Notes: generated from the sequence alone by a model not told the origin. A stretch of DNA of 64,000 nucleotides from Acidithiobacillus thiooxidans ATCC 19377 (GCF_009662475.1 NZ_CP045571.1:1424501-1488500), one strand, 5' to 3'. Counted from the stretch's first letter, positions 25,280 to 63,174 are shown. Translations and numbers: made by a program.

Positions 25280-25480
25280 CAGCAACCCGACCTCAATATG
25301 CCAGACATCAAAATCATCTTGCGAACATGGAGGCAGTGCGACGTGAAGTCGCGTAAGTTATTTTTTTAGACTGTTCTCTCTTGAAAAAGAGAACCTGGTG
25401 TTCGTCCACCAGTGCCCGTATGGCACATGCGCACAAGCAGTAATGCTAGCGTGTGAAGCTGCCATAAAAGTACCCACGGG

Positions 25481-25503
25481 TGTTACGTCTTTCGTTATTT
25501 GAG
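25481..25503 (+). repeat. 23-bp sequence shared with 12929-12951, copy 2
   Basis: TGTTACGTCTTTCGTTAT followed by TTGAG; one mismatch to copy 1. See the entry at 12929. Confidence 0.6.
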
Positions 25504-25674
25504 TAGGGGGCTGGCGATTTATCCCATGGTCATTCAGAAGGATTTGGAGAACGGCTTCTCGTAGAGGGTGGGACGCAGAGGGTATAAAAGAACATAGAAA
25601 GGGCGGAATCTCCTTTGCTATCGTGGGAAGTGAATCAGACTTTCACGATAACCAAACCCATAGGAGGTCCGCCC

Positions 25675-39373: not shown

Positions 39374-39835
39374 TTGCAGGCGCAATATGCCCTGCAGGAT
39401 CTCAAAACGGTGCCTTACGCGATGATGCCGCGAAGAGCGGAGCTGCTGGCAATGGCGGAAACCTATGAGCGTTTCGGAAAGACCATGGAAATTGCCGTGA
39501 ACACGCAAGGTGCGGTGGTCCGCAAAATGTTTCTGACCGTGGCGATGCGCACACGAGACTTCGTGATGGAAACGCGTCGGGATGCGGAAAGCTGGGTGGA
39601 CAGAATCATGACCGTCATGGACCAGCAACTCCAGCGTTTCGAAGCGCAGACGGAAGAAGAATTACAGGCCCTGCAACAGATCGCCAAAGCGGTGGAGTTT
39701 GTGGAAACGCGCGTACAGCAACTGGAGCAGGCGCTGATGGAGGTACAGAGCAAGGAAGAACGGCTTAACCAGGCCGCATTCCCTTTCATGAAATTGATGG
39801 CCGCCGACATTATGGCGTCGTCAGCTTCCACCTAA
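39374..39835 (+). CDS. Uncharacterised coiled-coil protein, probably 5'-truncated
   Basis: 153 aa from TTG 39374, with the frame open further upstream into the motif cluster and no credible ribosome site, so the true N-terminus seems to have been lost. The C-terminal half is strongly helical and heptad-like (QLQRFEAQTEEELQALQQIA then VEFVETRVQQLEQALMEVQS). A Met-rich basic helix precedes it. I do not recognise the family. It converges on parE with a 4-bp overlap of stops. Confidence 0.5.
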   Translation: MQAQYALQDLKTVPYAMMPRRAELLAMAETYERFGKTMEIAVNTQGAVVRKMFLTVAMRTRDFVMETRRDAESWVDRIMTVMDQQLQRFEAQTEEELQALQQIAKAVEFVETRVQQLEQALMEVQSKEERLNQAAFPFMKLMAADIMASSAST

Positions 39836-41811
39836 ACATCCAGATCGGCCGTCCAGCCATCCCTTTCCATCCATGCCCGGCGCTCACCCGCCGACTGTTT
39901 GCCCATGAGCAGATTGAAGCGTTCCTGCAAAAAGGCTTGTTCGGTAAGTGTCATGGTGAGGGGGACCAATGACCGGGTATCTGGACACAAAGCCGTTTCC
40001 CAGAGTTGATCTGGATTCATCTCGCCCAGGCCCTTGAAACGCTGAACCGAAATAGCGGATTCCTTGACGCCTTCAGCGCGAAGACGCTCTATGGCCGCAT
40101 CCCGCTCTGTTTCGGCTTCACAATAGATTTTGCGGGCTTTGCCACGCCAGGTAGTATCTACCCGATACAGGGGCGGCTTCACCACAAATACATGCCCACG
40201 CCGGAGGAGTGCCGGAAAATGGCGCAGAAACAGCGTTAGAATTAGCACCTGAATATGGCTACCATCCACATCGGCATCCGAAAGAATCATGATTTTGCCG
40301 TAGCGCAATCCCGCCAGCACCTGTTCGGGATCGGCATCAACGCCATGCGGCTCTATCCCCAGGGCCACCGCCATATTGTGGACTTCCTGATTTTTGAAAA
40401 TCAGATCGGCATCCACCTCCCAGGTATTCAGCACCTTGCCCCGCAGCGGTAAAAGCGCCTGATATTCTTTATCACGCGCCGCCTTGGCGGAGCCGCCCGC
40501 CGAATCCCCTTCTACCAGAAACAATTCATTACGCTGAATATCTGTGCTTTCGCAATCGGTCAGCTTACCCGGTAAGGTCGCCAGCCCCGACCCCTTTTTG
40601 CGTTCCACTTTTTTCGCCGCACGACTGCGTAGCTGTGCGCTCTGAATGGCCTGTTCGACAATGGCCCTGCCCGCCTCGGGATGACTGTTCAGCCACAGTT
40701 CCAGAGGGTCACGAATGGTCTGCACCATGAGCTTGTAAGCCTCACGACTGGTGAGTTTATCCTTGGTCTGCCCCTGAAACTGAGGGTCAAGAATCCGTGC
40801 GGAAAGCACCAAGGCCATTTTGCCGGTGACGTCCTCCTGTACCAGCTTCACCTTGGCCGGCATCAGACTGTGATGTTCCATAAAGCTGCGCACAGCTTCA
40901 AAAACGCCGGCGCGGAACCCCGACTCATGGGTTCCCCCATCCAGGGTAGGGATAAGATTCACGTAGGTTTCGGGTTTCGGACAGCCCTGCGCCGCCCAGC
41001 AGATGGCCCAATTCGCCCCCTCCCCCTCAGCAAAGCCATGGCTGTCATCATTCTGGTAAACGGACTGCGTGAAAATAGGGGTGATGGTTTCGGTATCAGC
41101 CAGCAGTTCTTCCAGATAGCCGGAAAGTCCAGCATCGTATTGCCAGAGGATGGGCTCCTGTTCGGGCAGGGAGAGCGTGACCCGCAACCCGGGCAAAAGA
41201 ATCGCCTTTGAACGGAGAAGATGGGTGAGTTCACGAATATTGACCCGATTTGAATCAAAATAGCGGGCATCCGGCCAGACCTGAACCCGCGTACCGTGTT
41301 TGCGGGAAGTGCTGTTTTCAATGCGCACCAGAGGCGCTTCAATGGCGCTGTCAGCGAAGCCCAGGCGGTAATGGCCATAGCCTGAACCTTCCGGATCTCG
41401 GGTGTGAATATCCACCACAACCCGCTTTGACAGGGCGTTCGTAACAGCGACACCGACGCCGTGCAATCCGCCCGAAAAACGATACGCGGAAGCTTGGTCT
41501 GTCTTATCGAATTTGCCACCGGCATGCAGTGTTGTGAAAGCGAGTTCTGCAGCCGGACGGGACTCACCGGGCGGGATGCCAACGGGAATACCCCGCCCGT
41601 TATCTTCCACTATGACCGAGCCATCCGGGCAAACCGTCACATCAATCTGGGTAGCCTGTCCAGCCAGGGCTTCATCCGCAGAATTATCTATCAGTTCCTG
41701 CACGATATGGGTGGGACAAGTGGTACGCGTGTACATGCCCGGGCGCAATCGCACGGGCTCCAGGCCTTTAAGAACGGTAAATTGATCAGCGCTGTAATTT
41801 TTGGATGCCAT
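39832..41811 (-). CDS. parE: DNA topoisomerase IV subunit B (ParE-type)
   Basis: 659 aa type II topoisomerase ATPase subunit. GHKL ATPase: VQELIDNSADEALAGQ (N box), VIVEDNGRGIPVGI (G1) and SGGLHGVGVAVTNALS (G2/ATP lid). Transducer domain in the middle, then TOPRIM: ELFLVEGDSAGGSAKAARDK (EGDSAGG, catalytic Glu) and IMILSDADVDGSHIQVLILT (DxDxD). RFKGLGEMNPDQLWETALCP closes the subunit. LNTWEVDADLIFKNQEVHN is ParE-like rather than GyrB-like. AAGGAG precedes ATG 41811. No parC is in the window, so it could be the chromosomal gene or one carried by the element. Confidence 0.92.
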   Translation of the reverse strand: MASKNYSADQFTVLKGLEPVRLRPGMYTRTTCPTHIVQELIDNSADEALAGQATQIDVTVCPDGSVIVEDNGRGIPVGIPPGESRPAAELAFTTLHAGGKFDKTDQASAYRFSGGLHGVGVAVTNALSKRVVVDIHTRDPEGSGYGHYRLGFADSAIEAPLVRIENSTSRKHGTRVQVWPDARYFDSNRVNIRELTHLLRSKAILLPGLRVTLSLPEQEPILWQYDAGLSGYLEELLADTETITPIFTQSVYQNDDSHGFAEGEGANWAICWAAQGCPKPETYVNLIPTLDGGTHESGFRAGVFEAVRSFMEHHSLMPAKVKLVQEDVTGKMALVLSARILDPQFQGQTKDKLTSREAYKLMVQTIRDPLELWLNSHPEAGRAIVEQAIQSAQLRSRAAKKVERKKGSGLATLPGKLTDCESTDIQRNELFLVEGDSAGGSAKAARDKEYQALLPLRGKVLNTWEVDADLIFKNQEVHNMAVALGIEPHGVDADPEQVLAGLRYGKIMILSDADVDGSHIQVLILTLFLRHFPALLRRGHVFVVKPPLYRVDTTWRGKARKIYCEAETERDAAIERLRAEGVKESAISVQRFKGLGEMNPDQLWETALCPDTRSLVPLTMTLTEQAFLQERFNLLMGKQSAGERRAWMERDGWTADLDV

Positions 41812-48767: not shown

Positions 48768-49032
48768 GCAGAATTTCTCCTTTCTGGGGCTGAAAGGTTT
48801 ATTTTAACAGATAACAAAACGACACTTCCTCCTTATCATATCAAGGAATCGTGTTTGGTCCACTTCCTGCAGCATAGTAAAAACGCAAGACGCGTGCGTT
48901 GTATCAGTGTTCACCCGTGATGTCCATCATCGTTAGAAAAAGCGCGAAAAAAGCCGCTTTATAAAGACATTATAAGCAGACAAAAACCACATCCTACTCG
49001 TGATTGTAATACACAAGCACGAGAAATGATCG
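48768..49032. other. Divergent intergenic region
   Basis: 265 bp between the - strand gene block and the methylase remnant. GGAG for the - strand gene lies at 48777-48780. AT-rich, with a GCGCGAAAAAAGCC stretch that is similar to one at 58906. No gene or firm promoter is called. Confidence 0.4.
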
Positions 49033-55037: not shown

Positions 55038-55207
55038 AAAGTGGCTACCGAATTCATAGATCCAAGGATTCCGCATCGTAACATGAAAGCGTTTTTTGTG
55101 GCGCAACCAGCTGCAGACGGCGCATTGGTTTTTGCACGTTCCCGGCGCGCTCGCACTGCATCACACCAGATTTTCCAAAACTGCGTCTTGTTAGCCACCG
55201 TCATCAT
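55019..55207 (-). CDS. Small uncharacterised protein, possibly frameshifted
   Basis: 62 aa from ATG 55207, which overlaps the stop of the Suv3-like gene. Starts TVANKTQFWKIWCDAVRARR. In an alternative frame, the second half reads TCKNQCAVCSWLRHKKRFHV and continues into the P-loop protein start, which looks equally natural; the two frames may be parts of one gene with a shift near 55130. No family recognised. Confidence 0.35.
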   Translation of the reverse strand: MMTVANKTQFWKIWCDAVRARRERAKTNAPSAAGCATKNAFMLRCGILGSMNSVATLCPFLH

Positions 55208-57621
55208 TCCCGCTGCGATCGGTAACATCTTTCGCAAATTCCGTAAGCACTTTGGGCGGGAAGCGCCTTTCCGCAACTTCTGCAGTGACGTTTCAGACCC
55301 TGGCGGATCTGGACAATCAGCTGCTGGACGCAACGTTCCCTTTCCGCCGTAGCCCGGTGTATTTCGGGAAAAAATTGCGGATAACGATAGTGAAACCAGC
55401 AATACAGCGAGAGATGCTTGTAGTCAGATTCCAGTTCTTCCGTCTGCGCCCGCGTTCCACTGCATGCAGGAGAATGATGGGGCCGCTGTTCCAGAATGGC
55501 GGCAACCATCCTCCGGAAATGTTGCATCTGGCCGGCCCGCACATCGACGGGTGCCGTCAGGATTTGCAGACGCTCCGCCATGGACAAGCGATGAGAACCA
55601 GCCAGCGTGTCCAGAATATGGGCTTTATCCAACGTTTCAGTGAGATCCATGCAGGTGAACCAGTCAGAACCTTTAAGCGTTTTCTGCCAGGCAACCAGCA
55701 AGTCATGCACGCCAATGTCGGGCGCCGCATCCATGGCGCGGTCGATCCAGGTCCGGGTGGGCGCGGCAAAAATGGTGGGAAAGTTAATGGCGCTATCCGT
55801 TTTGTTGAGCGCTTTCTGGATTTGCCGGTGAATGGCGGCATCAGCGCCAGCGGCATGACCCACATCGTGATGCCCGTACCGCCCTGCCCGTCCAGCAATC
55901 TGCCGAATTAACGGCTTGGGTACGGCGGCGCTGATGCGGCCATTGTACTTTTCGCCTTCGCCAATAACGACCGTATGCGCCGGCAAATTCAGGCCCATAG
56001 CCACAGCATCCGTAGCGACCAGGATAGCGGCCTCCCCCGCACGGAAGCGACGGGCTTCTTCACGGCGGACTTCCGGCGGCATAGCCCCGTAAATCTGCGC
56101 GACCGAATGCCCGCTTTGACGGAAATATTCGCCCCAGCGAATGACCGAATTGCGGGAGAACACCACAAAAATACTGCCGGGCTTTAAGGCCTTGGGTGAG
56201 ATGGCCTGCGGCGTCATCGCCAGTTGCGTGAAACGCTTGGTGTGATGAACGGTCAGCGTATCACCGGTGATTTTCGCAAACGCCGTCAGCAGCGGTTCCA
56301 CGGCCGGACTGCCGAGTACAAAAAGACGGTCAGCAGACAATTCGAACAGCGCTTGCGTCCAGGCCCATCCCCGTTGCTCATCCGCGACCATCTGCATTTC
56401 GTCAATGACTGCCACGGCGTAATGCTGGTCACTGTCCAACATCTCAATCGTGGAACAAACCACCCGGGCCTGCGGGTCCAGATCGCGCTCTTCTCCGGTC
56501 ACCAAAGAAACCGCCACCCCTTGGCTGCGCAGTTCTTCGCAAACTTCGATGGCCAGCAGACGCAACGGTGCGAGGTAGACGCCATGCTCGCCGGGTTTGA
56601 GAGCTTTCAGGGCTTGCAACGCCTGGTAGGTTTTACCGGAATTGGTTGGCCCCAAATAGGCTTCCAGTTGTCGGGCACCCAGTTGCGGATTCGGGAAAAG
56701 GTGGTCCCAATGGCGGCCAGCAGCGATATTCAGTATGGGCGCGAACGCTTGTTGACCAACAATAGGCGGATACGGTGGTTTGCAGGACAATGGGGCACTG
56801 GGCATAGAGGCTTCCTGCAATAGAGCTTCCGTGTCTATCCGGTTGAGGCCATCACGACGCAACCTTTCCAGAGCGTCAGGACGGTACTGTGCCAAGGTTC
56901 TGCGAAAATCCAGATATGCTACCGTCCGCATAATATCCATCTGGTCACAATCCCGCCGGGATAAGGGCTCGTATCCCGCATCCATGATAAACTCATCGTA
57001 AGCCTCCGCGTTCCCTACGGCCAATTTGAAAAAATCACGGCATTCAGGACACGCATTGGGCGCATCAACCACGGCTCTTTCTGCCGCAGACCGCAATGCG
57101 TCATAAACAATATGTCGCGCCGATTCTTCGATGGAAGCCAATTCTTCGATGGAATCAGACACGGGCTCATTCATAAACTCGCCTAATGTGCCATAGCGCG
57201 AAAGATCGTATTCCTCATCCACCGCCCAATTAATCACATCTTCCGCGATCTGTTCGACGACCGATTCCTCATTTAAAATTTGCTCTGCCAGTGAAGCTAT
57301 CCATTCCAGAGCTAGATCGCTTTGCGGATGATGAGACAACAACATTCGATATTGCTGGCACGGTCCATGTGAGTTGTTTCGCAGTCGCATATCCCAAGCG
57401 GTATGAATCAGATCGCAAAGAGGGATGTTCTTCTCCAGGAATGGCCCTTCCGCTGCCAGAATGCCGCGCTGAATGAGCGCATCAGCGACACGCTTTGCAT
57501 CGCCGGACTGCGCTGCAAAGCCCAATTGGGCAAGTGCAATGGAAATGGCACCATTCCATGATGTTGTCGGCCCTTGCTTAGGTTGACCGCGTTGCTTACG
57601 ACGACGGGATTTGCTGCCCAT
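55204..57621 (-). CDS. Suv3-like superfamily 2 helicase
   Basis: 805 aa from ATG 57621 (TTAGGAGC upstream). The C-terminal ~450 residues are a Suv3-type helicase: EAYLGPTNSGKTYQALQALK (Walker A in the mitochondrial Suv3 form GPTNSGKTY), APLRLLAIEVCEELRSQGVA, VAVIDEMQMVADEQRGWAWT (DEMQM; Suv3 has DEIQM), AAILVATDAVAMGLNLPAHT and RQIAGRAGRYG (motif VI). A zinc-type tail CRSCGKALPAQSAYGICERC ends the protein. The N-terminal ~330 residues are unrecognised. Likely an RNA or RNA-DNA helicase. Confidence 0.83.
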   Translation of the reverse strand: MGSKSRRRKQRGQPKQGPTTSWNGAISIALAQLGFAAQSGDAKRVADALIQRGILAAEGPFLEKNIPLCDLIHTAWDMRLRNNSHGPCQQYRMLLSHHPQSDLALEWIASLAEQILNEESVVEQIAEDVINWAVDEEYDLSRYGTLGEFMNEPVSDSIEELASIEESARHIVYDALRSAAERAVVDAPNACPECRDFFKLAVGNAEAYDEFIMDAGYEPLSRRDCDQMDIMRTVAYLDFRRTLAQYRPDALERLRRDGLNRIDTEALLQEASMPSAPLSCKPPYPPIVGQQAFAPILNIAAGRHWDHLFPNPQLGARQLEAYLGPTNSGKTYQALQALKALKPGEHGVYLAPLRLLAIEVCEELRSQGVAVSLVTGEERDLDPQARVVCSTIEMLDSDQHYAVAVIDEMQMVADEQRGWAWTQALFELSADRLFVLGSPAVEPLLTAFAKITGDTLTVHHTKRFTQLAMTPQAISPKALKPGSIFVVFSRNSVIRWGEYFRQSGHSVAQIYGAMPPEVRREEARRFRAGEAAILVATDAVAMGLNLPAHTVVIGEGEKYNGRISAAVPKPLIRQIAGRAGRYGHHDVGHAAGADAAIHRQIQKALNKTDSAINFPTIFAAPTRTWIDRAMDAAPDIGVHDLLVAWQKTLKGSDWFTCMDLTETLDKAHILDTLAGSHRLSMAERLQILTAPVDVRAGQMQHFRRMVAAILEQRPHHSPACSGTRAQTEELESDYKHLSLYCWFHYRYPQFFPEIHRATAERERCVQQLIVQIRQGLKRHCRSCGKALPAQSAYGICERCYRSQRE

Positions 57622-58401: not shown

Positions 58402-58514
58402 GTGGTAACTCCCTGTATCAAGTGGTATATGTAGTATTATACCAAGTGATTTTTCGCGTTTATTTCGATAATAAAATAGCGGGCCTGGGATCAATTTGAT
58501 CTCTTTTGCCACCG

Positions 58515-58548
58515 TGCAAAAACAAAAAAGCCGCCCAAAAAAGGCGGC
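58515..58548 (-). terminator. Rho-independent terminator of ncRNA copy 1
   Basis: On the - strand: GCCGCC-TTTTTTG-GGCGGC followed by TTTTTTGTTTTTG. Strong stem with U-rich tail; positions 58530-58548 for the stem. Confidence 0.85.
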
Positions 58549-58730
58549 CTGCTTGCCCCCGATAAAGGAAGAAACCCGTGGCAAACTGCAGGTGTTATAT
58601 TCTGACCCAACCTGCCGCGCAAGCCCCTGGCTTAGAAATGAGGAGAATGCTTAGGCTGAGCCAGGCCCCAAAGACACCGCCTGCTGGTCATTGGGGTCCA
58701 TGAAAAACAACGCTTGCCTAAATGGGCAAT
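58518..58730 (-). ncRNA. Candidate structured small RNA, copy 1
   Basis: Read on the - strand: a 5' hairpin TTGCC-CATTTA-GGCAA (58714-58729), a stem CCCCAA/TTGGGG (58691-58696 with 58667-58672), loop sequence GCAGG..GTGT (58674-58684) that can pair with ACACCTGC (58588-58595) as a pseudoknot, a long variable hairpin CCTGGCT/AGCCAGG (58626-58632 with 58659-58665), and a terminator. Conserved in copy 2 at 62.0 kb. No open frame of interest within. Confidence 0.65.
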
Positions 58731-59219
58731 TTGAATAAGCGATCGAATAAACCAGAAAAAGATGTTGGTGCGCCAGATATTCAGGCCACATTTTTGGACC
58801 ACAGATAACGCAGGATGTTTCTGGTTGGCGCAACTTAGCGCGCTGATGCCGTGCGGGCTAACGCGAAAAATCGCTTAACTATTATTCTGAAACATCCATG
58901 AAAAAACGCGAAAAAAGCCCGTTAATGCAGCCGCGTGTGCCCCTATCTCGCGGTAGAATGGTGCCGTTTATAGGTACGGGCGACACCCCGAACTCCAAAC
59001 GCACGACCCCCTTTTCTGGCTCGGGGTTTGTGTCTTGCGCAAGAGCCGTTTCATATAGGCGCACAACCTACTGGCCCTGCCATTCTGGAAGGGTCCAGAA
59101 AAATCTGTTGTCTTTTTTCAGAACATCCGGCGCGCCTGTGCCGATGATGTCCCTCTTTTACGGGCAGCATGCCCATTATTCAAGGAGCACCAATAATGAA
59201 GCACATCAAGGAATAGTCC
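58731..59219. other. Intergenic region
   Basis: 490 bp without a recognised gene. It should contain the promoter of the ncRNA (- strand) and that of the + strand ligase unit. Near the end, AAGGAG precedes a seven-codon mini-frame ATG 59194 (MKHIKE-stop) that ends eight bases before the next start, MKHIDN; this looks like a duplicated gene start. Confidence 0.45.
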
Positions 59220-59555
59220 ATGAAACATATAGACAATCTGGAACTCGTGGCAGTCTGCACAGAGGATGATTTTCCAGGCAGCTTGAAACCGGTAATCGCC
59301 ATCCCGTTGAAGCCACACATGACAGCGGAAAATTTCCACGAGGCGGTAATCGATATCGTGGAGAATCGCTGTTTTGAAGAAGCCTGGTGGTGGCCTGATG
59401 AATATTACGAGGAATTGATCAGCATGATCAATGCGCGTTTCGCTGGCGATCTGGTGGCAAAGTCAACAATGATTTCTGAAAATTTGGCAGATAAAAAAAC
59501 GTATGCCTGCATACGTGTCATCACGCCAACTATTGAATGCAATGATGGATTCTGA
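59220..59555 (+). CDS. Uncharacterised acidic protein
   Basis: 111 aa: HIDNLELVAVCTEDDFPGSL then NFHEAVIDIVENRCFEEAWW and YYEELISMINARFAGDLVAK. Acidic and aromatic-rich, no signal peptide or membrane segment, no family recognised. Starts at ATG 59220, whose ribosome site is probably the AAGGAG 40 bases upstream used by a mini-frame just before it. Ten bases before ligA on the same strand. Confidence 0.6.
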   Translation: MKHIDNLELVAVCTEDDFPGSLKPVIAIPLKPHMTAENFHEAVIDIVENRCFEEAWWWPDEYYEELISMINARFAGDLVAKSTMISENLADKKTYACIRVITPTIECNDGF

Positions 59556-59565
59556 AGGAGCACTT

Positions 59566-61467
59566 ATGAACATCGAAGCACTAGCTGCCGAGCTGGCAGA
59601 AGACAATCGGGCTTATCGGGCCGGCAATCCCCGCATTACGGATCATGAATACGACCAGAAGGTGGAAAAGCTACGGAAAATATATCCGGCGCATCCTTTT
59701 CTGAATCAGGTGGAACCAGAACCGGAAGGCGTTTTTTCCGGTGAAAAGGTACGCCATAAAACCCCCATGCTCTCTACCAAGAAAGCCTACAGCGCGGAAG
59801 AAATAGACACATTCATCCGAAGCGTCTTACAGGCCGCCCAGGCGTTGGGTATTCCGCTCGATGATGTGCGGTTTAGAGCGACACCCAAATTAGACGGCCT
59901 ATCGGGTCGCTACGACGGTGCCGGACATCTCTACACACGCGGCAACGGTACGGAAGGCCAGGACATTTCTAACGCCCTGGCCAAGGGACTTATTATCGAC
60001 GGCACTGGGAACCCCGGAGATGGGGAAATTGTGGTAGACGAGCAATTTTTCCAGGAACACCTATATGGCAAAACGTTCAATGGCCGTCCACTGAAGCACC
60101 CACGCAATTTCATGGTGGGATTCATTGGTGCGGACACTCTGGGGGAACACCACCGTCTGGCGGTCGCCGCCCAAGCCGCCCGATTCGTCCCTTATACGGA
60201 GATTAACCAGGTAACGGGTGACAGCCTATCCCTGCTGGAAAACCTGGAAGAAATTTCACGCACATTGAGAAATGACTGCGCCTATCGAACTGACGGCATC
60301 GTCATTGAAGCGGAGGATCCGCAAATCAAGGCTTTTTTAGGCGCGACCGATAGTTACCACCGTTGGCAGATTGCCTATAAGACCAAGGGAGAAACGGCGG
60401 ATGTCATGGTCAGGGAAGTCACCTGGCAAGTGGGACGCACAGGGCGCATCACGCCGGTCATAGAACTAGACCCGGTGGAACTCTCTGGGGCCGTCATACA
60501 ACGGGTAACGGCCCATAACGCTGCCACGGTAAAAGCCAAAGGCATCGCACCATGCACAATTATCCGCCTCATTCGGGCGGGTGAAGTGATTCCCACCATG
60601 GATACGATCATCAAGCCTTCCGGACAAGTGAAAATTCCAGACCTGTGCCCATGTTGTAGCGGACCGTTACAGTGGGAAGGAGAAAATTTGATCTGCTCGG
60701 CAGGTGTATTGTGCCAAGACCAGGTAGAAGGCGCGATGGAACACTTCTGCCAGACCCTGGAAATTGAGGGCTTCGGACCCAAGATCGTTGAAAAACTGGT
60801 CGCAGAAAATGGCATCCGGTACTTCAGCGATGTTTTCACATTGGGACTGGAGGAATGCATCGCCCTGGGCATCAGCCCTGGGGTGGCCAAAAACCTCGCC
60901 AAAGTGGTCGATAACCGCAAGAAAACGCCTATCGATGATTGGCGCGTTTTGGCGGCCTTCGGTATCCGCAATCTGGGTCGTGGCGACGCGAAAAATCTGC
61001 TGCGGCACATCCGGATAGACGGCTTGAACGGCATTACGACGGAGTTCATTCGTGGCATAGAAGGCTTTGGGCCAATCACCTCCGGCCAAATTGCCGGAGA
61101 CCTCCAATCAAACCAGGATGAAATCCATCGGGTAGTTAGGCATCTGCACATCGTCCACAGCATGGATGATGCCGGCCAAAAGCCACTGCAGGGAGAAAAG
61201 ATGGTGTTTACCGGAACATTTCAATCGGCGGACCGGAAAACTTTGGAAAAAACAGCGGAGGATCTGGGGGCCACGGTGCAATCTGGCGTTAATGCCGGGA
61301 CGACGTTGCTGGTCATCGGCGACAAACCCGGTGCCAAGAAAACCACGGCTGCAGAATCCCTTGGCATTCAGACCATGGACGAAGGGACCTATCTGGATTG
61401 GATAAAAAGCGTACCTCTCACCAGCAAACCTGCAATCCATAAGTCCGCTCCAGAGTCCCTTTTTTAA
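59566..61467 (+). CDS. ligA: NAD-dependent DNA ligase
   Basis: 633 aa from ATG 59566 (AAGGAGC upstream). Adenylation domain with active-site Lys about residue 108 in TPKLDGLSGRYDGAG; domain Ia is partly preserved (KVRHKTPMLSTKKAYSAEEI). OB fold WQVGRTGRITPVIELDPVEL, zinc finger CPCCSGPLQWEGENLICSAG, HhH domain GFGPKIVEKLVAENGIRYFS and a BRCT domain (MVFTGTFQSADRKTLEKTAE). Divergent from chromosomal LigA at the usual HxxPMLSL block and slightly short, so probably element-encoded. Joins nicks in DNA using NAD+. Confidence 0.92.
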   Translation: MNIEALAAELAEDNRAYRAGNPRITDHEYDQKVEKLRKIYPAHPFLNQVEPEPEGVFSGEKVRHKTPMLSTKKAYSAEEIDTFIRSVLQAAQALGIPLDDVRFRATPKLDGLSGRYDGAGHLYTRGNGTEGQDISNALAKGLIIDGTGNPGDGEIVVDEQFFQEHLYGKTFNGRPLKHPRNFMVGFIGADTLGEHHRLAVAAQAARFVPYTEINQVTGDSLSLLENLEEISRTLRNDCAYRTDGIVIEAEDPQIKAFLGATDSYHRWQIAYKTKGETADVMVREVTWQVGRTGRITPVIELDPVELSGAVIQRVTAHNAATVKAKGIAPCTIIRLIRAGEVIPTMDTIIKPSGQVKIPDLCPCCSGPLQWEGENLICSAGVLCQDQVEGAMEHFCQTLEIEGFGPKIVEKLVAENGIRYFSDVFTLGLEECIALGISPGVAKNLAKVVDNRKKTPIDDWRVLAAFGIRNLGRGDAKNLLRHIRIDGLNGITTEFIRGIEGFGPITSGQIAGDLQSNQDEIHRVVRHLHIVHSMDDAGQKPLQGEKMVFTGTFQSADRKTLEKTAEDLGATVQSGVNAGTTLLVIGDKPGAKKTTAAESLGIQTMDEGTYLDWIKSVPLTSKPAIHKSAPESLF

Positions 61468-61478
61468 GGAGGATTGAT

Positions 61479-61853
61479 ATGTCCTATTTTAAGGAAGCGA
61501 ATGCCTTTCTTCGCATGCTCAAAAAGGGAGAAATGGATCGCCAAAAAGCGCAAAGACATATTGACAAAATTCTGGTCATTGCCGCGCGCATTGAATTGAC
61601 AGCGGGTATGCCTGGGGACGATAGCCCGAGCGACTTGGCTCCGGAACTACAGGACCTCTACTATGACACTTTGACGGCCGAATTGGAAAAGGCCAATCCG
61701 GATCGCTCTCACGCTGAACACGGGTCGCAGAGATTCCCGACAGGGAAAGTAACACGTTGGTTACAGTGTCATAAAGGGCATGAAACCTTTGGTCCCACGA
61801 CAATGCAGCAAGTTCCTTGCAGCATTTGCGGGGAATATCTCCTGTCAAACTAA
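61479..61853 (+). CDS. Uncharacterised protein with C-terminal zinc knuckle
   Basis: 124 aa. Helical N-terminus (YFKEANAFLRMLKKGEMDRQ), then a C-terminal ribbon WLQCHKGHETFGPTTMQQVP-CSICGEYL. AAGGAGG lies seven bases before ATG 61479 and 11 bases after ligA, so co-expressed. A terminator follows directly. No family recognised. Confidence 0.65.
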   Translation: MSYFKEANAFLRMLKKGEMDRQKAQRHIDKILVIAARIELTAGMPGDDSPSDLAPELQDLYYDTLTAELEKANPDRSHAEHGSQRFPTGKVTRWLQCHKGHETFGPTTMQQVPCSICGEYLLSN

Positions 61854-61860
61854 TCCATAC

Positions 61861-61886
61861 GGAGGGGCTCACGCCCCTCTTTTTTT
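61861..61886 (+). terminator. Rho-independent terminator of the ligA unit
   Basis: GAGGGGC-TCAC-GCCCCTC followed by TTTTTTT (61863-61887), eight bases after the 61479 gene stop. Strong stem and U-run. Confidence 0.9.
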
Positions 61887-61997
61887 GTCCGGAATCTGCG
61901 GGAAGACTGCGGGAGTGCATCACGGACCATTAATTGGTTTCTCAAAAAAAACATGGCCGGGATCAATTTGATCTCTTGATCGTTTTTATGCTACCGC

Positions 61998-62140
61998 ACA
62001 AAAATAAAAAGCCGACCCAGAAAAAGGTCGGCCTGCTTGTCCCCGGCGGAGATATAGGAGAACCGTGGCAAACTGCAGGTGTTATTTTCTGGCTATAGCC
62101 AGTCTCCAAAGACACCGCCTGCCGGCCTTTGGAGAGCCTA
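61998..62140 (-). ncRNA. Candidate structured small RNA, copy 2
   Basis: On the - strand: stem TCTCCAAAG/CTTTGGAGA (62127-62135 with 62103-62111), loop GCAGG..GTGT (62113-62123) pairing with ACACCTGC (62075-62082), a short perfect hairpin CTGGCTATAGCCAG (62089-62102) in the place of the long hairpin of copy 1, then the conserved AGTTTGCCACGG and a terminator. Stem bases differ from copy 1 but pairing is kept. The next gene downstream is on the other strand, so this is not a leader. Confidence 0.65.
62000..62032 (-). terminator. Rho-independent terminator of ncRNA copy 2
   Basis: On the - strand: GCCGACC-TTTTTCTG-GGTCGGC followed by TTTTTATTTTTG; stem at 62011-62032. Same place as in copy 1 but with different stem bases. 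Confidence 0.85.
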
Positions 62141-62304
62141 AAAAACGCACGAATCGACACCGATCTATTTTTGGCGGTTAAATAAACAATCAATTAATCC
62201 CGCAAAAGTTTGTGAGCATCAGCTTCCCCAACAAATAACTTTGACCAGATTTGATGCCATATGTTTCTGACGGAGTGGAAATTTTTGTGCGGATTACGTG
62301 ACGC

Positions 62305-63174
62305 CTATTCACTCGAAAAATGGCTGACATATCCTTTAGCGTCCATAAAAACCCCGCAATTTTCCGTGTGATTCCAGAGTGTCAGCCCCATATCATCCCG
62401 TTCTTTGGAAACCGCCTGATAAGCCCCACTATCCAGAAAAACATGACTGCGTATTTCCAGCGGGCCTTGGCCGGATACAGGCGGAATGATGGTGTGGCCG
62501 ACATAGGTCCGGGAGAGTGATTCTTGATGCCTCGACGGCAAAAGCTGGCTTTTCCGCACACGATTCCTGAAATCCACGATCAAACTTCGACCCCACAAAA
62601 CATGATCCTTCCATGTCCCCATATCGTCAAAGCCGACGATAAAATGTTTCAGGTCCCAAATCGCGGATTCTCCCGCATCCAGCAAAGCATCTGTCCAGGA
62701 ATCATTCGAAAGTGCATTGGTGAGTTCCGCATGGGCAACATGGAACCGACCTTTTACGCTCCCGACAACCCGCACCAAAGGCACCCGCTCCAATAAAGGC
62801 ATATATTGCGCTACCCGGTTAAATCGCTTGACCCATTGCCAACCCTTAATGCAAGTAAAAGCATATGCGTAATCCCGTTGCCGACGGTCTTTAGTTTTTC
62901 CGTCAATCCACGCCATCAGCATGGCGTCATGGTTGCCAAGAACCGGATAAAACCAGGGTTCTTCCAGGAGGGCCAGGCATCCTGCTGAATCCGGGCCACG
63001 GTCCACCAGATCGCCGACACTGAACAGGCGGTCATTTCCCGGTTCAAAAGACACCTGTGCCAGTGCGTCATCCAGCATGGCCCGGCAACCATGGAGATCA
63101 CCTACAATAAAATCACGTCCGACAGGATTGGCTGAATGCCGGGATATGGCCGGATTATTTTCAAGAAACCGCAT
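62305..63174 (-). CDS. PPP-family serine/threonine protein phosphatase / metallophosphoesterase
   Basis: 289 aa. Two-metal phosphoesterase motifs in order: FIVGDLHGCRAMLDDAL (GDxHG), FSVGDLVDRGPDSAGCLALL (GDxxDRG), YPVLGNHDAMLMAWIDGKTK (GNHD/E), FHVAHAELTNALSNDSW in place of the usual HGG, and TYVGHTIIPPVSGQGPLE (GH). Similar to phage lambda-type protein phosphatase and ApaH-like enzymes. It could dephosphorylate proteins or hydrolyse dinucleoside polyphosphates. Common in phages and plasmids. Confidence 0.85.
   Translation of the reverse strand: MRFLENNPAISRHSANPVGRDFIVGDLHGCRAMLDDALAQVSFEPGNDRLFSVGDLVDRGPDSAGCLALLEEPWFYPVLGNHDAMLMAWIDGKTKDRRQRDYAYAFTCIKGWQWVKRFNRVAQYMPLLERVPLVRVVGSVKGRFHVAHAELTNALSNDSWTDALLDAGESAIWDLKHFIVGFDDMGTWKDHVLWGRSLIVDFRNRVRKSQLLPSRHQESLSRTYVGHTIIPPVSGQGPLEIRSHVFLDSGAYQAVSKERDDMGLTLWNHTENCGVFMDAKGYVSHFSSE

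What the first reader, a model, noticed from the sequence alone, without database searches (positions are those of the whole stretch)
58515..62140. Two-copy structured RNA family with covariation and its own terminators
Two intergenic segments 3.4 kb apart (58518-58730 and 61998-62140, - strand) share CAGGCGGTGTCTTTGG, AACACCTGCAGTTTGCCACGG and a rho-independent terminator. Pairing is conserved while bases change: CCCC/GGGG in one copy is CTCC/GGAG in the other; the terminator stem is GCCGCC versus GCCGACC; the central hairpin is long in one and a 14-base palindrome in the other. A possible pseudoknot (GCAGG..GTGT with ACACCTGC) is kept in both. Both are also followed by the palindrome GATCAATTTGATC. 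Copy 2 has no - strand gene behind it, so this looks like a free-standing sRNA, possibly duplicated regulatory or incompatibility RNA of the element. I do not recognise it as a known class.
Basis: partly seen in the sequence, partly recalled or inferred. Interest (0 to 1): 0.78.

Follow-up and report, generated by a model that had tools for sequence, protein, structure and literature searches.

The report
Duplicated orphan small-RNA gene on ICE
A large mobile DNA element in an acid-loving bacterium carries two diverged copies of what looks like a small RNA gene with its own stop signal; it matches no known RNA family and was found nowhere else, so its existence as an RNA is likely but its job is unknown.

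Summary
Two minus-strand intergenic units (58518-58700, 61998-62140) share identical blocks, an intrinsic terminator and upstream sequence. No further copy was found in the genome, 31 genomes of the order, 369 of the class, plasmids or phages; Rfam has no match and no reading frame is kept. Best reading: a free-standing, terminated small-RNA gene of a large integrative conjugative element, duplicated once.

The covariation claim is thin: two sequences, one fully compensatory pair, one compensated terminator insertion, one broken pair, otherwise invariant; 268 of 500 shuffles reach the observed score. The pseudoknot never varies, so it is possible but untested, and its CCTGC strand could equally pair with a second GCAGG beside the terminator.

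The shared palindrome is not part of the RNA: it is one of 26 identical GATCAAWTTGATC sites confined to 270 kb of the element, probably sites for an element-encoded DNA-binding protein.

An incompatibility role is unsupported; target prediction did not beat shuffled controls, no sigma-70 promoter was matched, and no expression data exist. Modest interest.

The parts
58518..58700 (-). RNA unit, copy 1 (P1 hairpin to terminator U-tract)
61998..62140 (-). RNA unit, copy 2
58666..58696 (-). P1 hairpin, copy 1 (CCCCAATGAC...GTCTTTGGGG, one U.U mismatch; loop holds GCAGG at 58680-58684)
62104..62134 (-). P1 hairpin, copy 2 (CTCCAAAGGC...GTCTTTGGAG; loop holds GCAGG at 62118-62122)
58576..58596 (-). 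Invariant strand AACACCTGCAGTTTGCCACGG, copy 1; CCTGC (58588-58592) can pair with the P1 loop or with GCAGG beside the terminator
62063..62083 (-). Invariant strand AACACCTGCAGTTTGCCACGG, copy 2; CCTGC at 62075-62079
58518..58550 (-). Intrinsic terminator, copy 1 (9 pairs, then TTTTGTTTTT)
61999..62034 (-). Intrinsic terminator, copy 2 (10 pairs, then TTTATTTTTG; extra compensated A-U pair)
58731..58753 (-). Upstream conserved block, copy 1, GGTTTATTCGATCGCTTATTCAA; possible promoter region
62178..62200 (-). Upstream conserved block, copy 2, GGATTAATTGATTGTTTATTTAA
58794..58823 (-). Distal upstream conserved block, copy 1, CAGAAACATCCTGCGTTATCTGTGGTCCAA; possible activator site
62240..62269 (-). 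Distal upstream conserved block, copy 2
58489..58501 (.). Palindrome GATCAATTTGATC; one of 26 element-wide sites, not RNA-specific
61961..61973 (.). Palindrome GATCAATTTGATC; one of 26 element-wide sites

Best explanation
Each segment is an independent small-RNA transcription unit of a large integrative conjugative element, duplicated once within it. Transcription starts upstream of P1 from a conserved but non-canonical promoter region and ends at the intrinsic terminator, giving an RNA of about 140-190 nt. Shown: two paralogous units, a terminator on each, conserved upstream blocks, no protein frame, no known family. Inferred: that it is transcribed, and that it acts in trans by base pairing of its invariant stretch (AACACCTGCAGTTTGCCACGG) and the P1 loop (GCAGGCGG) with an mRNA of the element or host. 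The GCAGG/CCTGC long-range pairing may hold the RNA closed until a target competes for it.
For: Two copies with identical blocks of 17-23 nt while P1's 5' strand, the apical hairpin and a spacer differ. Terminator in both, one with a compensated A-U insertion. One compensatory pair in P1. Copy 2 folds better than shuffles (z = -3.35 with terminator). Upstream blocks conserved beyond the RNA. No reading frame kept in both copies. Copy 1 has no minus-strand gene upstream, so it needs its own promoter. Phosphatase relatives in other genomes have no such RNA behind them, so it is not simply that gene's 3' UTR. The element encodes a TraI_2 relaxase, TraD/TraG and VirB4/TrbE-type proteins.
Against: No sigma-70 promoter match in either upstream region. 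Folding without the terminator is no better than shuffles (z = 0.56 and -1.25). Pair counts are reached by 268 of 500 shuffles. No target better than shuffled seeds. No ProQ/FinO chaperone gene in the genome. No relatives to show conservation. No expression data.
Confidence: 0.5

Rival explanations
1. The duplicated unit works as DNA: a segment with binding sites for element proteins (replication, transfer or segregation), duplicated around the ligase operon, with the terminators merely insulating neighbouring genes.
For: Similarity extends over about 340 bp including upstream blocks and the palindrome. The palindrome is an element-wide site. The two units form direct repeats around a three-gene plus-strand cassette.
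Against: The best-conserved parts lie between P1 and the terminator. The terminator stem is kept through a compensated insertion. Apart from the palindrome the unit occurs only twice.
Confidence: 0.2
2. Cis-acting or 3'-UTR RNA: copy 2 is the 3' UTR and terminator of the upstream phosphatase mRNA (62305-63174), copy 1 a displaced duplicate; any small RNA is a processing product.
For: Copy 2 begins about 165 nt after the phosphatase stop codon on the same strand with no other terminator-like site between them.
Against: Copy 1 has no minus-strand gene upstream. Phosphatase relatives in the genus have no such RNA downstream. Upstream blocks are kept in both copies.
Confidence: 0.17
3. Structured RNA that works with a protein rather than by antisense pairing (RNA antitoxin, guide or decoy for an element protein).
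For: Possible pseudoknot with invariant loop and strand; the invariant sequence exceeds what the stems need.
Against: No repeat array as in type III antitoxins; no nuclease, toxin or reverse transcriptase family recognised among the flanking genes; no Rfam hit.
Confidence: 0.1

Closest known systems
Mobile-element small RNAs with intrinsic terminators (for example FinP of F plasmids, as a general kind; from general knowledge)
   Same: Short, intergenic, stem-loops ending in an intrinsic terminator, on a conjugative element
   Different: Two paralogues; no antisense target found; no FinO/ProQ protein in the genome; no Rfam family matches
Rfam suhB/mmgR (RF00519) and anti-hemB (RF02837)
   Same: Sub-threshold matches over the 3' end of copy 1 only (17.4 and 19.3 bits)
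   Different: Gathering scores are 41 and 49.5 bits; the matches cover the GC stem plus U-run that many terminators give
Type III toxin-antitoxin RNA antitoxins (ToxI; from general knowledge)
   Same: Possible pseudoknot, terminator, mobile element
   Different: No tandem pseudoknot repeats, no toxin gene of such a family recognised next to it

Membership tests
Any Rfam 15 family | Match at or above the gathering score | tested here: not met
   no match at either copy; best sub-threshold 19.3 bits against 49.5
Intrinsically terminated bacterial small RNA (general kind) | Intrinsic terminator at the 3' end | tested here: met
   (consensus match in both copies)
Intrinsically terminated bacterial small RNA (general kind) | Own promoter | tested here: inconclusive
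   No sigma-70 match, but conserved upstream blocks
Intrinsically terminated bacterial small RNA (general kind) | Non-coding | tested here: met
   no start codon plus open frame kept in both copies
Intrinsically terminated bacterial small RNA (general kind) | Transcript detected | not testable with these tools
   no expression data available
FinP-like antisense or incompatibility RNA | Complementary target transcript | tested here: inconclusive
   best duplexes among 1325 start regions no better than shuffled seeds
FinP-like antisense or incompatibility RNA | FinO/ProQ chaperone encoded | tested here: not met
Type III antitoxin RNA | Tandem repeats followed by a toxin nuclease gene | tested here: not met

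The most novel reading that the evidence does not exclude
A new, element-specific regulatory RNA class in which one strand (CCTGC) switches between a pseudoknot with the P1 loop and a long hairpin with the GCAGG next to the terminator, so that the RNA controls its own termination or the exposure of its target-pairing strand, with two paralogues tuned differently.
Probability: 0.08. Interest if true: 0.6.

Novelty: new member of a known kind. Interest (0 to 1): 0.3.

Why it matters
If transcribed, it would be a small RNA without known relatives, carried as two diverged copies on an integrative conjugative element of an acidophile group in which regulation of such elements is little studied. It gives two clear probes (the invariant 21-mer and the P1 loop) for a simple test. 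The dispersed palindrome set found alongside may say more about how this element is regulated or segregated than the RNA itself.

Tried and rejected
Further copies: DNA search and 17-mer with 3 mismatches in the own genome, DNA search in 17 genus genomes (leftover hits are short chance matches, and those inspected lie in unrelated sequence), plasmids, phages (one 46-bp match at E = 0.4 in a phage gene), exact patterns in viral contigs and genome contigs (neighbourhoods of 15 and 16 read, those of 66 and 67 scanned with the covariance model), covariance model in 31 order and 369 class genomes, the element, and phosphatase and ligase relatives: none. Protein-coding explanation: a shared frame appears in the 3' half (ITPAVCHG...KRSN), but the DNA there is identical or terminator, no start is shared and copy 1 has no continuous frame across the unit; rejected. 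Decayed phosphatase copy upstream of copy 1: not supported. Antisense targets in the element: no better than shuffles. ProQ/FinO: absent. tRNA or tmRNA in the window: none. Literature: no paper found in the held library describes this RNA or the palindrome in this group (titles and abstracts only were looked at).

Full report
What is there. The window is G000:C1:1424501-1488500 of a 3.4-Mb single-contig genome. Two minus-strand intergenic segments, 58518-58700 and 61998-62140, are paralogous. Identity is concentrated in GCAGGCGGTGTCTTTGG, ATAACACCTGCAGTTTGCCACGG, CAAGCAGGCCG and the terminator, and blastn within the element region gives E = 1e-20 for the 3' half and 2e-6 for the 5' half.

Structure. 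P1 is a hairpin of 10 potential pairs with an 11-nt loop: seven pairs never vary, one is changed on both sides (C-G to U-A), one on one side (A-U to G-U) and one is a U.U mismatch in copy 1. P2 is 12 bp in copy 1 and 5 bp in copy 2. Both copies end in an intrinsic terminator; copy 2 has an extra A-U pair inserted in register. The proposed pseudoknot, loop GCAGG with CCTGC, is possible in both (about -10 kcal/mol for the isolated duplex) but never varies, so it has no covariation support. A second GCAGG immediately 5' of the terminator can pair with the same CCTGC, together with TTTGCC/GGCAA, with similar energy (-12.8 and -10.7 kcal/mol). Whole-unit folding beats dinucleotide shuffles for copy 2 (z = -3.35) and weakly for copy 1 (-1.2); without the terminator neither does clearly. 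The shuffle control for pairing gives no significance (268 of 500), as must be expected from two sequences.

Is it an RNA gene? For: terminators on both copies, no gene behind copy 2, no reading frame kept, conserved upstream blocks. Against: no sigma-70 promoter match and no expression data. Copy 2 begins about 165 nt after the stop codon of a NinI-like phosphatase gene on the same strand (62305-63174) with no terminator-like site between, so a 3'-UTR origin is possible; but copy 1 has no upstream minus-strand gene, and phosphatase relatives in other genus genomes have no such sequence behind them.

Distribution. No Rfam match. Only these two copies were found in the genome. None was found by DNA search in 17 genus genomes, in plasmids or phages, by exact pattern in viral contigs and 84,980 species genomes, or by covariance model in 31 order genomes and 369 class genomes and 72 viral loci. 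The ligase that lies between the copies has relatives (50-66% identity) in three other genus genomes, but the RNA does not accompany it.

Setting. The copies flank a plus-strand operon of a 111-aa ORF, an NAD-dependent DNA ligase and a 124-aa ORF. The sequence to the right, about 270 kb, encodes a TraI_2 relaxase, a TraD/TraG-type coupling protein, a VirB4/TrbE-type ATPase, type IV pilus proteins and many DNA-repair proteins, which makes it most likely an integrative conjugative element; its exact ends were not mapped.

The palindrome. GATCAA(A/T)TTGATC occurs exactly 26 times in the genome, all between 1,482,989 and 1,752,694, and its extension G(G/A)GATCAAWTTGATCCC is nearly invariant. The two sites beside the RNAs are the leftmost of this set, so the palindrome is not part of the RNA. 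It lies mostly between genes, in divergent, tandem and convergent gaps. A ParB_N protein is encoded in the element (G000:C1:1743628), so parS-like or KorB-like sites are a reasonable guess. One or two copies occur in eight other genus genomes, in at least two of them roughly 100-130 bp upstream of a Dam-family methyltransferase gene, with a third similar case not confirmed by a family search.

Mechanism. The most likely reading is an element-encoded small RNA, duplicated once, acting by base pairing through its invariant strand; probability about one half. Target prediction over 1325 start regions in the element region did not beat shuffled seeds, and no ProQ/FinO chaperone gene was found in the genome, so the acting step is inference only. 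Rivals are a DNA-level duplicated site, a 3'-UTR product, and a protein-binding RNA.

Verdict. An orphan, narrowly distributed candidate small RNA is a common kind of finding in mobile elements; interest is modest unless expression and a target are shown.

Noticed in passing
window 58489-58501, 61961-61973 and 24 more sites in G000:C1:1499265-1752694 (L059-L061, L130-L136): Palindrome GATCAAWTTGATC (extended GGGATCAAWTTGATCCC): all 26 exact copies in the 3.4-Mb genome lie within 270 kb of the element, mostly intergenic; likely binding sites of an element-wide DNA-binding protein (a ParB_N protein is encoded at G000:C1:1743628)..
   Followed up: partly
L210, L214, L217 (other genus genomes), about position 1502 of each: The same palindrome as a single copy roughly 100-130 bp upstream of a Dam-family adenine methyltransferase gene (PF05869 confirmed for L210 and L217; L214 similar by eye); the palindrome itself holds two GATC sites..
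   Followed up: partly
window 58901-58926, 48936-48962 and about 15-20 more places in the element (e.g. G000:C1:1509541, 1571691, 1657420, 1714468): A second dispersed motif, approximately ATAAACGGCTTTTTTCGCGTTTTTT, mostly in intergenic gaps of the element, often near the palindrome..
   Followed up: partly
window 58899-59000 and G000:C1:1714466-1714567: About 104 bp upstream of copy 1 are 80% identical to another place in the element, 230 kb away..
   Followed up: no
window 25394-25510 (+): Match to a group II intron family (RF02012, 45 bits)..
   Followed up: no
window 55204-57618 (-): Suv3-like RNA helicase near the element's left part, with plasmid relatives at about 35% identity..
   Followed up: no
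window 39832-41811 (-): GyrB/ParE-type topoisomerase subunit (659 aa) about 17 kb to the left of the RNA copies..
   Followed up: no
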